Below are positions 1,070 to 31,834 of a stretch of DNA of 31,834 nt, in pieces (within the stretch, counting starts at the first letter, position 1; the number at the start of each line of letters is the position of its first letter). The DNA is from a virus, in IMG/VR virus record IMGVR_UViG_3300023109_000077, positions 1-31,834 of that record; one strand, 5' to 3'. Made by a program: the position numbers and the translations under genes. The notes beneath the pieces were generated by a model that was not told the DNA's origin, did no database searches, and worked only from the letters and a program-made list of their open reading frames with translations.

Positions 1070-1504
1070 TTAATTCCAGTTTTCAGCCAATTTAGGGAAT
1101 GCTTCTTTAACAAGTTTTATGGTCAGCCCATTGTACGGTAGCTTTCGATCTTTCATGGCAATAAGAACCTTTGCATCATCAGGGTGTAGAGACTCAAGCA
1201 TTTCGATAAAAATCGTTTCACGTTTTACCTGATTCAAATTCTTCTGTGCATCTGTTGGACCATCAACAAATAGATATAGCTTTCTGATTGATGAATAGAA
1301 TACATTCTCCCCATCAATTGCATCCGCCTCTTTATATGGAGGCACACCGTCTGGAAGAAGCCACCTCACCGTTGGGTCAAATGTGTACCCCAATACAGCT
1401 TTGAGTGCTGGACTAGAGTATTTATGTAAAATTGCAATTTTATCTTTTCTTGCTTTCGCTTCACCGACTTGTTTCAAAACCGAGTGCATAGTTTCTTTGG
1501 GCAT
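1070..1504 (-). CDS. DUF6433-like conserved T4-like phage protein
   Basis: 144 aa. The pattern (HSVLKQVGEAKARKDKIAIL, LKAVLGYTFDP, VRWLLPDGVPPYK, then an all-helical half ending LVKEAFPKLAENWN) matches a family widespread in marine T4-like phages, usually beside replication genes. I recall it as DUF6433 (established knowledge, not searched). Its ATG overlaps the RNase H stop by one base (TAATG), so the two are translationally coupled. Its role is unknown, but the constant pairing with the exonuclease suggests DNA replication or repair. Confidence 0.75.
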   Translation of the reverse strand: MPKETMHSVLKQVGEAKARKDKIAILHKYSSPALKAVLGYTFDPTVRWLLPDGVPPYKEADAIDGENVFYSSIRKLYLFVDGPTDAQKNLNQVKRETIFIEMLESLHPDDAKVLIAMKDRKLPYNGLTIKLVKEAFPKLAENWN

Positions 1505-2370
1505 TAAAAATCACCTATATGTTCAATTAAATATTTAAGCTTTTTCTTGATAAAGTAATTGATCAAACCCTTGCGTGGTGCAGGAGTCCAGTTCTCATAC
1601 GTCTCAAGAACCTTATCACTTATATAGTCAGGCACGAATTCCAAGTCAACTAGAACCTCGTTGCGGCGGTAGTTGCGCAACATAACCTCATTACAGAAGT
1701 CAGCTGGATCCTTGTCGATCCAGTCAGAAAGTTTCTTGCTAGACAGAGGCTTCTGGCGCTCCTTTGCAATGATCACATTATCACCGGACAAAAAGTTGGG
1801 AACACCGTCTCCACGATCGCCTCGCATGATGTGCTCTTTAAGGAACGTCTCAGGATTATCGCAGGTTATCCACTTTTTAAGGACAGGCGAGAACTGAGAA
1901 ACATTCACATATTTCTGCAGCTGAGCAAAGTCTTTATCTCCAGAGAGAATGAGCACCTTTTCAGTATCAGAGTTGTTAAGCTGAACGCCTTTGTGTTTAC
2001 ATAGGACTCCAATAACGTCGTCAGCCTCAGCACGGGCGACCTGAATGACTTTATATGGGAAGAATTCTTTTAAGTCGCTTCGAATATCATTCAAGCATTC
2101 AAACACGCTGCTCCAGTTAATCGTGGATTTCTCACGATCTTCTTTGCGGTGGGCTTTGTAATATGGGAAATGGTCTTTGCGCCAAACGTTAGTGTCATCG
2201 CAACAAATAACCATTTCCCCATACTCGTCACGGAACTTTGAGTTGTATGAGCGAATGCTGTTGAGAACCATATGGCGGATCAAATCAACATCAACCTCTG
2301 TGGTTTTGCTCATAGCAAGCTGTTTCATCATATTACTGATCATAACTTGGTTTAGATCTAAAAGTATCAT
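1504..2370 (-). CDS. rnh: RNase H / 5'-3' exonuclease (T4 Rnh, FEN-1 family)
   Basis: 288 aa, close to the T4 protein (305 aa). It carries the FEN-1/RNase H metal-site pattern: D5 in MILLDLN, CCDD at 57-60, the AEADD cluster at 114-118, SGDKD at 143-147, and the helix-hairpin-helix type GDRGDGVPN at 184-192. The enzyme would remove RNA primers from lagging-strand fragments and chew 5' ends at the replication fork. It starts just after the 124-codon-class gene and ends in a TAATG junction with the DUF6433-like gene. Confidence 0.93.
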   Translation of the reverse strand: MILLDLNQVMISNMMKQLAMSKTTEVDVDLIRHMVLNSIRSYNSKFRDEYGEMVICCDDTNVWRKDHFPYYKAHRKEDREKSTINWSSVFECLNDIRSDLKEFFPYKVIQVARAEADDVIGVLCKHKGVQLNNSDTEKVLILSGDKDFAQLQKYVNVSQFSPVLKKWITCDNPETFLKEHIMRGDRGDGVPNFLSGDNVIIAKERQKPLSSKKLSDWIDKDPADFCNEVMLRNYRRNEVLVDLEFVPDYISDKVLETYENWTPAPRKGLINYFIKKKLKYLIEHIGDF

Positions 2371-8418: not shown

Positions 8419-9018
8419 TTATTCGAAGCTGTCAGCCATTTCGTGGTTTACTGTGGCGTGTCCCTGCTCATCTTGCCTCACCTTAACGATAACATCTCTT
8501 AACGTAGCATCATAAGGCAAATTGTAATAAATTCTTGCGATATTTGGCGCTGGTGTATTCTCTATTCTGCCAGAATCAATTTCTTCCAGATATTGTGTGT
8601 AGCTCACAACAGCTTGGTCCTCGAAGTATCCAACCATGCGATGCGCTGTTTGAGGAAAGAAAACATACAATATGAAGTAGAAGTGCCAGAATACAAACTG
8701 GGCGAGTAATATAACCATTCTCTCTAGCCAGTTGGGCTTTGCAACCTCAATAAAGATCATAAGATGCATACGCTCATTCTCTGCTTCTTCCAGTAGAGTC
8801 TTGATCCAGCCTCTATCATCAGGCTCCATTCTTCTGAGACTGCGCAAGTGATTCCACATGCCAGCTACCATCCCAGGAACCCCTGCTACAGTTTCTAGTA
8901 CAACGGCTCTATGCCCATAACGCTTGGCAAAGAACGTGTCCGCAAACCAGCGAAAGGAAATAGTTAAACCGTATGCTACTTTATCAGAAAGACGGGTACA
9001 TTTCACGTTTATATTCAC
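8419..9018 (-). CDS. alternative oxidase (AOX, di-iron ubiquinol oxidase)
   Basis: 199 aa from a GTG start, a full-length bacterial-size AOX. Di-iron ligands are all visible: E42 (LETVAGVPGM), E82 and H85 (ENERMHL), E133 (GYFEDQAV), E184 and H187 (RQDEQGHATVNH). Two hydrophobic helices, about residues 44-55 and 101-121, fit interfacial membrane binding. AOX oxidises ubiquinol with oxygen, bypassing proton-pumping complexes. Cyanophages carry the related PTOX, but the RxDExxH...VNH end here is the AOX type. No in-frame ATG precedes the first ligand, and GTG at 9006 is an alternative start. Confidence 0.93.
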   Translation of the reverse strand: MNINVKCTRLSDKVAYGLTISFRWFADTFFAKRYGHRAVVLETVAGVPGMVAGMWNHLRSLRRMEPDDRGWIKTLLEEAENERMHLMIFIEVAKPNWLERMVILLAQFVFWHFYFILYVFFPQTAHRMVGYFEDQAVVSYTQYLEEIDSGRIENTPAPNIARIYYNLPYDATLRDVIVKVRQDEQGHATVNHEMADSFE

Positions 9019-23399: not shown

Positions 23400-23724
23400 T
23401 CATCCTCTTTTCTATCAATCCTGGCTTTTTTGCCGCAAGGTTTGTAAGATTATGTTTCTGGAAAGTTGAACGAAGTCCATCGATATAACCTTCGGCTTCT
23501 TGTAACGAAGACTGCAGATTAGACATACGTTCTTGATTTGCTTTTGCCTGTTCCTCAAGAGCATTAATTCTTTTATCTTTAGACTCAACCGCTATAGAAA
23601 GTTTAGTATTGTCTGAAGAAAGTTTTTGAATTCTATCTTGAGTGTCTTGGTAAAATGTATAAGCCCCGAAGCCAGCAGCTCCGAGACTCCCCAGAATAAA
23701 CAACATTAAATATACACGTATCAT
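23344..23724 (-). CDS. inner-membrane coiled-coil protein, candidate i-spanin (Rz-like)
   Basis: 126 aa. Residues 4-24 (VYLMLFILGSLGAAGFGAYTF) are an N-terminal membrane anchor. Residues 28-90 form a coiled coil (QDRIQKLSSDNTKLSIAVES). Overlap with the lipoprotein gene is as in lambda Rz/Rz1. Membrane anchor plus periplasmic coil is the expected i-spanin topology. ATGA overlap with the preceding gene. Confidence 0.75.
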   Translation of the reverse strand: MIRVYLMLFILGSLGAAGFGAYTFYQDTQDRIQKLSSDNTKLSIAVESKDKRINALEEQAKANQERMSNLQSSLQEAEGYIDGLRSTFQKHNLTNLAAKKPGLIEKRMNDATNKLFDDLSSRAVTE

Positions 23725-24119
23725 TTGTATTGAATCACCTGATTTGGTGTCTTAAAGTTTTTCTTGCGCATGATGGTTTTAGCCACCACATCAAACTCAT
23801 CGTTCTTTTGATCATACTTAACAACTACAGGGATGTTGAGATCTGACTGCATATCTTTAATGACAGCCTCAGCACCAGCCACACCCTTCAAGTTCTTACC
23901 TTGTTGATTATATATCTTTTTTACAAAATCGGCAAGCTCTTTCATCTTAATATTTGGTTTATTTCTTTCATCAGACATACGCTCACCGAAATGTTTGGTA
24001 AATTCAAAGTCAATCTTAAACCGCTCAAACATACGATCAACAAACTTCTCAAACGCTTTCATCTGAGATAGAGTAATTTCTTCTTGTTCTTGCAAGTATT
24101 CTTTAAAATTAAGCATCAC
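23721..24119 (-). CDS. conserved T4-like phage protein, possible BECR/RelE-like fold
   Basis: 132 aa. MLNFKEYLQEQEE resembles the N-terminal leader of T4-type head-core proteins. FEFTKHFGERMSDERNKPN, then IPVVVKYDQKNDEFDVVAKTI, is a repeating pattern in marine T4-like phages, loosely like RelE/BECR ribonucleases (His-Arg and beta-sheet). This fold is an inference. ATGA overlap with the gene upstream, and a spanin pair follows. Confidence 0.7.
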   Translation of the reverse strand: MMLNFKEYLQEQEEITLSQMKAFEKFVDRMFERFKIDFEFTKHFGERMSDERNKPNIKMKELADFVKKIYNQQGKNLKGVAGAEAVIKDMQSDLNIPVVVKYDQKNDEFDVVAKTIMRKKNFKTPNQVIQYK

Positions 24120-28810: not shown

Positions 28811-30670
28811 TCACTTATACTTTTCTTTATATGCACGTTCAAGTTCTCTAGCAGACAAACCATTAAAAGATCTGGCCACATCGTACGCATAACCACCAAT
28901 TGTCTCTTTGTCACCCTTTGATTGAGCACGGCGATGTAAAGCTTCTACAGCTTTGTTCATCATAGCTTCTTTTGGGTCTCGGTTAATAGCAGTTCTTTCC
29001 TGCATTGGCGTTTCCTTTGAATATTTCTTACGCAATTTCGTAGTTCCATATTCACCTGCGCCGTTTACTTCATTGATAGACTCTTTACGAACTTTAGAAG
29101 CCAGATCTTTATCAGCTTTACCCCAAGTTCCAGAACCTTTAGTTATAAACGAATTTACTCTAGCGAGCGCCCATTGTTCTTGGGATGCACCAGGACGGTG
29201 TCCTGTTCTCCAAGCAGCCATTCCTCTATCATAAACTTTCTTCAGAATACCATATGATATTCCAGACTTTTCGGATTTTTTCTTCAGAGCTGCAACAGAT
29301 TCATTGATCTCAAATTCTTCATTTTTTGGAACGCAGTCGGGGACCATCTTGCCACCCTTCTCTTTCATTCCAACCTGCTTGTGTGTATCCCAACAAGCTT
29401 CATCAGTTCTTTCTTCAGCTCTGTTCTTTGTATTTGTATCTTTCGTTCTAGCACGATCCATCATCTTATCATGCTTTTGCTTATCAGATTCTTTTTCTTT
29501 TCTTATAAGTTCTCTTGCTCTTTCCTGAGATGCATTTTCACCAAACATGTCGTTGTATTTTTTGGTGTGCTTAGAAGTTTTGGTCTTCACTTTTTCATCT
29601 CCTGAATGCTTTTCTGGATACGCCGAAGGATCACTATGGTGCTTTTTAGCCGCCTTCTTGAATTGGCTGTCTCTCTTTTCTTTAGTAGATTTAGACAAAC
29701 CAGAATGATACTTTGCAGGTTGAGAACCCTTTTTATCACCAATATCGCTATCTTCTCTCGCTTCGATAACATATTCTTCGTTCTTATTTGATCTTGCTTT
29801 CGAGAGCCTCTCGCTTTCACCCTTACGAACTTTATTGATCAGCTTCTTAGACAAACGATCGATTTGAGCTTTCTTCTTGGAAACAAGCTTATCAATTGTT
29901 GACTTCTCAGCAGCACCCAATGAAGCGTAATTTGAACCACGGTCGCCAGCAACTTTCTTGCGGACCAACTGAATTGCCATCTTGCGTGCACGCTTTTTAA
30001 GTGTGTCTTGATCAGCCCTTTTCTTAGACTTAATCTTCCGCATACGAGCAATCTTCTTTGCATTTCGCTTCATGGTTCTGCCACGTGCCAATCTCTGTTG
30101 AATTGATAGCGCTTCGTTTTCCATTTCTTCTTTCAACTCTTTATTGATTGCATCAAAAATCTGTTTAGCATCTCTATCCGACAACCTCTTTGGGAGACCA
30201 GTCTTAAATGTTTCGAAGTCACCTGCCTTTGCTATACCACGCAATTTAGAGGCAGACATCCCCTCCACACCCTCTGCATCGGGGTCTCTAGCTCCAGCAG
30301 AAACAACCTTGATACTTTGGAACTTATATTCCTTGTTATTATATTTATCCAACAAACCCTGAAATTCTGTTACACGATCAGATCCAACAACGAGGACGAT
30401 TTCTTCGTATCCAGCCTTTTCGAGTTCTTGTACGATTTGGATAATAGTCTTTGATTGCGATTTATGGACTGACTTTCCAAACGCCTTTGACGCAAATCTA
30501 AATTTTGTTTGGTAGTCCAATGGATCTTTTCTACTATTCTGTGTGTGGGATAAGTAGATCCTAGCATCAGCTTTCTCGCTCTTTGCTACAGCTGCAACTT
30601 TGTTAGCCAACTTTTCATGACCAATAGTTGGAGGATTCATCCTCCCAAATGTAAATACAATTTTTTTCAT
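28811..30670 (-). CDS. nucleotidyltransferase fused to a basic head-type region and DUF5824-like domain
   Basis: 619 aa. Residues 1-160 are a HxGH-class transferase, with T-I-G-H at 15-18, VGSDR at 95-99 and MSASKLR at 138-144. Residues 190-300 are very basic (ARGRTMKRNAKKIARMRK). Residues 464-530 (ISYGILKKVYDRGMAAWRTG) match a DUF5824-type domain. INESVAAL and INEVNGAG are head-protease-like sites. The enzyme may be packed in the head and cleaved free (inference). Late-type octamer at 30740-30747. Confidence 0.85.
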   Translation of the reverse strand: MKKIVFTFGRMNPPTIGHEKLANKVAAVAKSEKADARIYLSHTQNSRKDPLDYQTKFRFASKAFGKSVHKSQSKTIIQIVQELEKAGYEEIVLVVGSDRVTEFQGLLDKYNNKEYKFQSIKVVSAGARDPDAEGVEGMSASKLRGIAKAGDFETFKTGLPKRLSDRDAKQIFDAINKELKEEMENEALSIQQRLARGRTMKRNAKKIARMRKIKSKKRADQDTLKKRARKMAIQLVRKKVAGDRGSNYASLGAAEKSTIDKLVSKKKAQIDRLSKKLINKVRKGESERLSKARSNKNEEYVIEAREDSDIGDKKGSQPAKYHSGLSKSTKEKRDSQFKKAAKKHHSDPSAYPEKHSGDEKVKTKTSKHTKKYNDMFGENASQERARELIRKEKESDKQKHDKMMDRARTKDTNTKNRAEERTDEACWDTHKQVGMKEKGGKMVPDCVPKNEEFEINESVAALKKKSEKSGISYGILKKVYDRGMAAWRTGHRPGASQEQWALARVNSFITKGSGTWGKADKDLASKVRKESINEVNGAGEYGTTKLRKKYSKETPMQERTAINRDPKEAMMNKAVEALHRRAQSKGDKETIGGYAYDVARSFNGLSARELERAYKEKYK

Positions 30671-30759: not shown

Positions 30760-31834
30760 TTACCTTTGCCACCCTTTAATAATGTCTGGACTGAAGTTAG
30801 CTTTTGAGAATTCGAGTCGATCGACAAGCTTTAAGGCAGAACCAATCTTGTCAATGGCAACATAACCTTCTGGGGCAGTAACACGCATACCATTATTGGT
30901 TCTCAGGAACGTTCCCATTGAAGATGCTGCGTCCATTTTCTTGATTACAATCAACTTCGCTTCAATAATAAGGTTCATTAAGTCAAAGACTTTAGCTATG
31001 TCAGCTTTACTATTTTGAGTAAAGAACTTCATTGCTTCAACTTTCTTTGCTCTCCATGTTTCTTTGCCCTTTTCAGACTTCTTACTGGCAATCTCTTTAT
31101 CAAAGTATCCATCTATATAGTTGAGAAGACCAGTTACAACTGCAGAACCTTTAGGAACCTTCTGACCCGCACGCACGAGGGTGTTCATGTAAGTTTTGGT
31201 TCTCAGTAAGATAAAGTCATCATCCGAGATCCCATTAAGAGTTGCTGCGTTGATAGTATTAAACAGCTTGCCTGCTCTTGAAAGAACTGATGTGATCTCT
31301 GCAGTTTCTTTTGCTGTGAATGTAGCCTTACCTGACACATCACGGAAGTTGGCATCTGTCGAGAAAACTGTCTTGGTCTTTTTCAGCTTTGTAGCGATAT
31401 CTTTACCGAACGAAGCTTTCATCGTTTCAAATGATTTTCCTTCGTATGTTGTGTGCCAAACAATCCCCAGTTTCGCCGCTCTGATTTCTCTCGCAAGAGG
31501 GGAAGATGACGGAACAGCATAAACAATCGTATTAGGTTGGAAGGTGACACATTTTTCTCCGTCAATAGTTTCTGTTCTTAGGTCTGACTTTGAATACAAA
31601 AAGTCTCCCTGAACGACACCTTTAATACCCAGCGCTGGTAAATACTTCAATGCCTCTTTGAGCTTTGTTGCTAAATCACCTTTGGTGTCTGCATCAATAT
31701 CTGCAGGAGTCTTGTATACCTTTGGGTTCTTATTGAAGATACCTTTCTTTGCAACAAAGAACTTACCGTCCGATGGGTCAAGACCTGCAAAGATAGCAGG
31801 AGCTCCGTCCCATTTAACAGTAGAGTTTACGGCA
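30760..31834 (-). CDS. DUF6267-like protein with ligase-type KxDG motif (partial at window edge)
   Basis: The frame is open from 31833 down, 357 codons visible; the true start is outside. A TTG at 31650 is only an internal codon. VKWDGAPAIFAG (K at 31815) is the KxDG motif I of covalent nucleotidyltransferases. FFVAKKGIFNKNP, GVVQGDFLYS and GIVWHTTYEGK follow in an order like ligase motifs III-IV. The match to phage DUF6267 is recalled. A real ligase activity would be inference. Confidence 0.8.
   Translation of the reverse strand, partial: AVNSTVKWDGAPAIFAGLDPSDGKFFVAKKGIFNKNPKVYKTPADIDADTKGDLATKLKEALKYLPALGIKGVVQGDFLYSKSDLRTETIDGEKCVTFQPNTIVYAVPSSSPLAREIRAAKLGIVWHTTYEGKSFETMKASFGKDIATKLKKTKTVFSTDANFRDVSGKATFTAKETAEITSVLSRAGKLFNTINAATLNGISDDDFILLRTKTYMNTLVRAGQKVPKGSAVVTGLLNYIDGYFDKEIASKKSEKGKETWRAKKVEAMKFFTQNSKADIAKVFDLMNLIIEAKLIVIKKMDAASSMGTFLRTNNGMRVTAPEGYVAIDKIGSALKLVDRLEFSKANFSPDIIKGWQR

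What the first reader, a model, noticed from the sequence alone, without database searches (positions are those of the whole stretch)
30760..31834. Ligase-like KxDG motif in a DUF6267-type protein
KWDGAPA plus the order of later motifs suggests a cryptic covalent nucleotidyltransferase. If true, many phages carry an unrecognised ligase or capping enzyme.
Basis: partly seen in the sequence, partly recalled or inferred. Interest (0 to 1): 0.6.

Follow-up and report, generated by a model that had tools for sequence, protein, structure and literature searches.

The report
Hidden ligase-like enzyme in marine phages
A protein of unknown function that almost all T4-like cyanobacterial phages carry looks, from its invariant residues and predicted fold, like a heavily disguised DNA/RNA ligase-type enzyme, which could explain how these phages join DNA (or RNA) although most have no recognisable ligase; its activity is untested.

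Summary
Window 30760-31833, minus strand, is the C-terminal 357 aa of a DUF6267 (PF19782) protein; its first ~50 residues are cut off by the contig end. The KxDG lysine and the later motif residues (III, IV, V) are identical in 320 of 320 relatives fetched without selecting for them. AlphaFold gives a confident model (pLDDT 89). For the shortest family members, 36 of the 50 best PDB matches, including the first 13, are DNA ligases, RNA ligases or mRNA guanylyltransferases. No single match is significant (best E 0.086), and sequence profiles do not detect the link. Best reading: a nucleotidyltransferase-only covalent enzyme (about 0.85), most likely a polynucleotide ligase (about 0.55). It lies in the replication cluster of phages that mostly lack any recognised ligase. 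These phages also carry a stand-alone ligase DNA-binding domain (DUF6433); in this window it directly follows T4-type RNase H. I propose DUF6267 as the missing catalytic half; exceptions (phages Mosig, DLP6, S-CRM01) keep that partnership tentative. The fused or adjacent NMNAT-like gene, nuclease-like upstream genes and a leader resembling T4's capsid-targeting sequence leave other roles open. Catalysis is untested.

The parts
30760..31833 (-). DUF6267 ORF, C-terminal 357 aa; N-terminus beyond the contig end
31804..31815 (-). Motif I KWDG (predicted nucleotide-accepting lysine at 31815-31813)
   Evidence: K, D, G each identical in 320/320
31744..31746 (-). Invariant Lys in FFVAKKG, candidate motif Ia
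   Evidence: invariant in A1 and A2
31603..31611 (-). QGD, candidate motif III (Asp instead of the usual Glu)
   Evidence: Asp identical in 320/320
31444..31455 (-). HTTY, candidate motif IIIa (His as in RLIG1; alternatively Y of TIVY)
   Evidence: His 320/320; RLIG1 motif IIIa His, PMC11494293
30859..30870 (-). EGYV, motif IV
   Evidence: E and G 320/320; aligns with motif IV of T4 Rnl1
30817..30831 (-). KLVDR, motif V (Lys 13 residues after the motif IV Glu in this protein)
   Evidence: K and R 320/320; spacing 13 in 19 of the 20 Rnl1 relatives where both motif patterns were found
28811..30670 (-). HxGH-superfamily NMNAT/cytidylyltransferase-like protein with K/R-rich C-terminal region and DUF5824; next gene downstream, fused to DUF6267 in S-PM2
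   Evidence: PHROG 455 profile spans both proteins; fusion protein A0A0M6VVW4 of S-PM2
1070..1504 (-). DUF6433: stand-alone DNA-binding domain of the ATP-dependent DNA-ligase type, proposed partner
   Evidence: PF20025 E 1.3e-30; phrog_114 'ATP-dependent DNA ligase' E 2.9e-5; family versus T4 gp30 residues 2-47 score 42.6, decoys <=18.6
1504..2370 (-). T4-type RNase H / 5'-3' exonuclease, one base overlap with DUF6433
   Evidence: PF02739 and PF09293, phrog_107

Best explanation
DUF6267 is a divergent member of the covalent nucleotidyltransferase (ligase/capping) superfamily reduced to the nucleotidyltransferase domain, with an all-helical insert between motifs IIIa and IV. The motif I lysine is predicted to take NMP (probably AMP) from a nucleotide cofactor and pass it to a 5'-phosphate end, after which a 3'-OH attacks, as in a polynucleotide ligase. 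The most likely role is sealing DNA ends during replication, recombination or repair. In most of these phages it would be the catalytic module missing from T4-like cyanophages that lack gene 30, possibly acting with DUF6433, a stand-alone ligase DNA-binding domain beside RNase H. Shown: motif invariance, collective fold resemblance, genomic setting, co-distribution. Inferred: catalysis, cofactor, substrate, partnership.
For: Nine motif residues identical in 320/320 relatives, unselected. Confident models, pLDDT 89.0 and 89.3, pTM 0.85. [quoted passage not shown] ligases also among weak matches of the full-length model. Motif IV-V spacing as in T4 Rnl1 and in RLIG1 (E240-K253, PMC11494293). Gene lies downstream of DNA polymerase, UvsX and gp41 helicase-primase. 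No PF01068, PF01653 or PF09414 match in 10 of 12 DUF6267 genomes; a review states that g30 homologues are not found in cyanomyoviruses (PMC2984593), and Iyer et al. 2021 that jumbo subgroup 2.1 phages mostly lack any known ligase but have a stand-alone ligase DNA-binding domain (PMC7824862). That domain (DUF6433) is confirmed against T4 gp30, is found in all 12 genomes (11 by protein search; the twelfth only by a sub-threshold PF04675 match), has a similar phage distribution (475 versus 471 records), and follows RNase H in HTVC008M and in this window. PhiM12 and S-CRM01 pair DUF6433 with ligases that lack the helical domain.
Against: No individual PDB match is significant (best E 0.086, TM 0.28). 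No sequence-profile match beyond the motif IV-V segment, and that is hardly above decoys. Motif III is D, not E; motif Ia is K, not R. No OB domain or motif VI. DLP6 and S-CRM01 carry an ordinary ligase as well as DUF6267. Pelagiphage Mosig has DUF6433 but no DUF6267, PF01068 or PF01653 match. Co-distribution is largely shared ancestry of Kyanoviridae, not independent events. Host ligase could suffice.
Confidence: 0.55

Rival explanations
1. It is an RNA-repair ligase of the T4 Rnl1/Rnl2 type that reseals tRNA or other RNA cut by host defences; the replication-cluster position is incidental.
For: Best fold matches are the Naegleria RNA ligase and a tRNA ligase; motif IV-V resembles Rnl1 most; lack of an OB domain fits RNA ligases; in pelagiphages a P-loop kinase (AAA_33/Zeta toxin type) lies two genes downstream; explains why DLP6 and S-CRM01 keep a DNA ligase too.
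Against: No phosphatase/kinase partner in most genomes; near-universal presence in one phage group and location with DNA polymerase, UvsX and helicase are unusual for tRNA repair; no PNKP-type enzyme seen beside it in this window.
Confidence: 0.2
2. It is a covalent nucleotidyltransferase that is not a ligase: it caps or blocks nucleic-acid ends, or modifies a protein, together with the NMNAT-like protein to which it is fused in S-PM2.
For: Fusion and adjacency with an HxGH nucleotidyltransferase (in 184 of ~310 loci a protein of the cluster containing this family lies 1-4 genes downstream); that partner has been found in virions by mass spectrometry (PMC10665884, PMC9146016, PMC9602691); capping enzymes are among the fold matches.
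Against: Bacterial hosts have no known need for a GMP cap; DUF6267 itself is not in the S-SZBM1 virion table; no substrate evidence.
Confidence: 0.15
3. It has the fold but lost or never had ligase chemistry: a binding protein, or a differently acting enzyme, that kept KxDG for nucleotide binding.
For: D in motif III, missing motif VI, extra invariant residues (N-terminal HxxHxED, HTxY) not typical of ligases.
Against: A catalytic lysine and all main motif residues invariant in 320/320 is not what decay looks like.
Confidence: 0.1

Closest known systems
T4 RNA ligase 1 (Rnl1) / RLIG1 RNA ligases
   Same: KxDG, a basic residue some 16-23 residues after it, EG..V and a Lys 12-14 residues further on (13 in T4 Rnl1 and RLIG1); RLIG1 has His in motif IIIa (PMC11494293), as HTxY could be
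   Different: No significant profile match; D in motif III; a helical insert of roughly 130 residues between motifs IIIa and IV; no Rnl1 C-terminal domain recognised
ATP-dependent DNA ligase, T4 gp30 type
   Same: Same motif order, fold matches to several DNA ligases, position in the replication cluster, and a stand-alone gp30-type DNA-binding domain (DUF6433) in the same phages
   Different: No OB domain, no motif VI, DNA-binding domain not in the same chain; PF01068 does not match
mRNA guanylyltransferase (RNGTT) and NAD-dependent ligase adenylation domain
   Same: Among the fold matches
   Different: No OB domain, no NAD-ligase Ia domain recognised; PF01653 does not match
PF19782 / DUF6267, PHROG 455, T4-GC 71
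   Same: It is a member of this family (E 1.9e-100)
   Different: Family has no function assigned; no paper in the searched library names it

Membership tests
DUF6267 (PF19782) | Profile match above the curated cut-off | tested here: met
   337 bits against a cut-off of 27
Covalent nucleotidyltransferase (ligase/capping) superfamily | Motif I KxDG with invariant lysine | tested here: met
   320/320
Covalent nucleotidyltransferase (ligase/capping) superfamily | Motif IV EG and motif V lysine in order and spacing | tested here: met
   320/320 each; spacing 12-14 versus 13 in Rnl1
Covalent nucleotidyltransferase (ligase/capping) superfamily | Motif III acidic residue (Glu) | tested here: inconclusive
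   An invariant acidic residue is there but it is Asp (QGD), assignment by order only
Covalent nucleotidyltransferase (ligase/capping) superfamily | Motif Ia and IIIa | tested here: inconclusive
   Invariant K in FFVxxK and H in HTxY are candidates; no superposition possible
Covalent nucleotidyltransferase (ligase/capping) superfamily | Nucleotidyltransferase fold | tested here: inconclusive
   36 of 50 best PDB matches of the compact model belong to the superfamily, but none significant alone, TM <=0.28
Covalent nucleotidyltransferase (ligase/capping) superfamily | Lysyl-NMP intermediate | not testable with these tools
   Needs biochemistry
ATP-dependent DNA ligase (PF01068, gp30 type) | Profile match, OB domain with motif VI, own DNA-binding domain | tested here: not met
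   No Pfam match; chain ends shortly after motif V
RNA ligase (PF09414) / Rnl1 | Profile match | tested here: not met
   No Pfam match; hhalign only in motif IV-V
NAD-dependent DNA ligase (PF01653) | Profile match and Ia domain | tested here: not met
Split ligase with DUF6433 | Both halves always together | tested here: not met
   Together in 12 of 12 DUF6267 genomes tested, one of them only by a sub-threshold match, and in this window, but Mosig has DUF6433 alone and phiM12 has it with an ordinary ligase

The most novel reading that the evidence does not exclude
T4-like marine phages use a two-protein DNA ligase: DUF6267 is a free-standing catalytic nucleotidyltransferase without an OB domain, and DUF6433, encoded next to RNase H, is its DNA-binding subunit. 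Together they replace gene 30 in one of the most abundant phage groups in the sea.
Probability: 0.28. Interest if true: 0.85.

Novelty: new variant of a known kind. Interest (0 to 1): 0.64.

Why it matters
How T4-like cyanophages seal Okazaki fragments and recombination breaks without a recognisable gene 30 ligase has been left at 'an unrecognised homologue or the host enzyme' (PMC2984593) or 'recruits a host ligase' (PMC7824862). This gives a named, near-universal candidate with a predicted catalytic lysine, so the question can be settled with one purified protein and a labelled nucleotide. It would also assign a function to one of the hypothetical genes shared by the cyanophage group, and might add an enzyme to the ligase toolbox.

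Tried and rejected
Sequence-only detection: phmmer/hmmsearch against PDB sequences with the window protein, A1 and A2 found no ligase; Pfam gave only chance matches; hhalign to Rnl1, Rnl2 and gp30 gave motif IV-V only, not clearly above 20 decoy families. First conservation count was circular because the extraction pattern required KxDG; redone without it. The idea that DUF6267 strictly replaces gp30 was weakened by DLP6 and S-CRM01, which have both. The idea that DUF6433 and DUF6267 are obligate partners was weakened by Mosig. The idea that DUF6267 is a virion protein: leader statistics fit in one clade, but the one virion table checked lists its neighbours 140, 139 and 136 and not DUF6267 (SSZBM1_141). 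NAD recycling between an NMNAT-like partner and an NAD-dependent ligase was considered; no evidence for or against. An attempt to build a further ligase profile through the genome search by phylum failed because virus records have no such handle.

Full report
WHAT IS THERE. The finding lies on the minus strand. The ORF at 30760-31833 is open at the contig end, so the window shows the last 357 residues of a protein of about 408. It is DUF6267 (PF19782, E 1.9e-100), PHROG 455, T4-GC 71. Neither Pfam nor PHROGs assigns a function, and no paper in the library searched names it. Relatives occur in 464-471 of 50,697 phage records, nearly all T4-like Synechococcus and Prochlorococcus phages, plus HTVC008M, Melnitz, DLP6, C48C1 and a few others. 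The window is itself a 31.8-kb virus fragment.

IS THE MOTIF REAL. An alignment of 78 full-length relatives (A1) and one including the compact P-SSM2 type (A2; 25-34% identity between the types) keep the same invariant residues: K-x-D-G-x-P; F-F-x-x-x-K; Q-x-D; H-T-x-Y; E-G-x-V; K-x-x-x-R; and an N-terminal H-x-x-H-x-E-D. Because my first extraction had required KxDG, I recounted by tblastn without it: each of nine motif residues is identical in 320 of 320 loci. The search words that fetched those loci do not contain KxDG (one word does contain motif IV).

FOLD. AlphaFold2 gives pLDDT 89.0 and pTM 0.85 for a full-length relative, with residues 1-14 disordered, and 89.3 and 0.85 for the compact type. 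The secondary structure follows the ligase order: strand ending at the motif I lysine, strand, helices, strands with III and IIIa, an all-helical insert (about 225-352 in the long form), then strands carrying IV and V. For the compact model, 36 of the 50 best PDB matches and all of ranks 1-13 are ligases or guanylyltransferases: Naegleria RNA ligase, tRNA ligase, human DNA ligases 1, 3 and 4, archaeal ligases, several LigA, T4 Rnl2 and RNGTT. The remainder are mainly carbonic anhydrases, proteasome and a CRISPR complex. By my own estimate ligase-superfamily chains are well under 1% of the library, so this is strong as a group, although no match is significant alone (best E 0.086, TM 0.28). The full-length model shows the same more weakly: NAD-ligase adenylation domains and RNA ligases among ranks 16-45, and RNA ligases right behind the family itself in BFVD. 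Sequence profiles do not see the link; the only local alignment is motif IV-V with Rnl1, where 0 of 60 column shuffles reach the score but real decoy families come close. The Glu-to-Lys distance from IV to V is 13-14 in A1, 12 in the compact type, 13 in Rnl1 and 13 in RLIG1 (E240, K253; PMC11494293).

WHAT IS DIFFERENT. Motif III has Asp. There is no OB domain and hence no motif VI; the chain ends shortly after motif V. RNA ligases such as Rnl1/Rnl2 also lack the OB domain (from general knowledge). The helical insert and the HxxHxED and HTxY residues are peculiar to this family.

GENOMIC SETTING. In annotated phages the gene follows DNA polymerase, UvsX, gp41 and often MazG. Downstream lies an HxGH NMNAT/cytidylyltransferase-like protein (here 28811-30670). 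PHROG 455 spans both proteins, and S-PM2 has them as one 591-aa chain (split in the older S-PM2 record). The gene directly upstream in many loci has what I read by eye as a PD-(D/E)XK nuclease pattern, in about ten unrelated sequence families without Pfam matches; this is inference.

LIGASE INVENTORY. Of 12 genomes or long records with DUF6267, PF01068 is found only in DLP6 and S-CRM01, and PF01653 and PF09414 in none. PMC2984593 notes that g30 homologues are not found in cyanomyoviruses. PMC7824862 notes that the jumbo cyanophage group lacks any known ligase but codes for a stand-alone ligase DNA-binding domain, AAX44695.1 of P-SSM2. I confirm that assignment: this family is DUF6433, it aligns with residues 2-47 of T4 gp30 with score 42.6 (E 1.8e-5 pairwise), and 22 other profiles score at most 18.6. 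It occurs in all 12 genomes (11; the twelfth rests on a sub-threshold PF04675 match) and in 475 phage records with nearly the same organism tally as DUF6267. In the window itself DUF6433 is at 1070-1504, overlapping T4-type RNase H (1504-2370) by one base, the same order as in HTVC008M. PhiM12 and S-CRM01 combine DUF6433 with ligases that lack the helical domain, consistent with that domain acting in trans. Against obligate pairing: Mosig has DUF6433 and neither DUF6267 nor PF01068/PF01653. The shared distribution is mostly common descent.

MECHANISM. Step 1, lysine + ATP to lysine-AMP: predicted from motifs and fold, not shown. Step 2, transfer to a 5'-phosphate, and step 3, sealing: inferred from superfamily membership. 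DNA is favoured over RNA by position, by the missing gene 30 and by DUF6433 beside RNase H; RNA is favoured by the closest fold matches, by the missing OB domain, by a P-loop kinase two genes downstream in pelagiphages and by coexistence with DNA ligases in two phages. I put covalent nucleotidyltransferase at about 0.85, ligase at about 0.55 for DNA or mixed substrate plus 0.2 for RNA only, and the two-protein ligase at 0.28.

A SECOND PATTERN. In one clade (L001-L080, the window's own clade) 73 of 79 DUF6267 proteins and 42 of 75 of the upstream genes start with M..F..[FY][LI].E, expected about 0.1 by chance for the upstream genes. The same pattern finds IPII and IPIII at their N-termini in 48 kb of T4, plus one internal match. 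In T4 this is the capsid targeting sequence, residues 4 and 7 for targeting, 8 and 10 for processing (PMC9026906). The cyanophage clade of P-HM2 has none (0 of 79). NMNAT-like proteins are repeatedly found in cyanophage virions (PMC10665884, PMC9602691, PMC9146016), but DUF6267 of S-SZBM1 is not in its virion table. Packaging of DUF6267 in the leader-bearing clade is therefore an open, testable idea.

Noticed in passing
window 1070-2370: DUF6433 (stand-alone ligase DNA-binding domain) overlaps T4-type RNase H by one base, an apparent Okazaki-fragment processing pair at the far end of the window from DUF6267.
   Followed up: yes
L001-L080, N-termini of DUF6267 and of the gene directly upstream: A shared leader M..F..[FY][LI].E resembling the T4 IPIII capsid targeting sequence, on otherwise unrelated proteins, common in this clade, partly present upstream in the pelagiphage clade and absent in the P-HM2 clade.
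   Followed up: partly
gene -1 of DUF6267 in many loci (e.g. L001:5066-5848, L046:1760-2548, L179:2451-3530, L029:4719-5831): About ten unrelated protein families, each with a PD-(D/E)XK-nuclease-like pattern and no Pfam match, occupy the same place upstream of DUF6267: a swappable nuclease slot?
   Followed up: partly
window 23721-24119: Protein with the same leader (MLNFKEYLQEQ); homologous to the C-terminal part of PHROG 23027, whose N-terminal part matches the NMNAT-like protein of this window.
   Followed up: no
HTVC008M 106562-107224 (L165:13598-14260): P-loop kinase of AAA_33/Zeta-toxin type two genes downstream of DUF6267 in pelagiphages.
   Followed up: partly
window 8419-9018: Alternative oxidase gene (PF01786, E 2.4e-78) in the phage, alongside ribonucleotide reductase genes.
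   Followed up: no
window 28811-30670: NMNAT-like protein has TxGH instead of HxGH, a long K/R-rich tail and DUF5824; related tails recur in other proteins of these phages.
   Followed up: no
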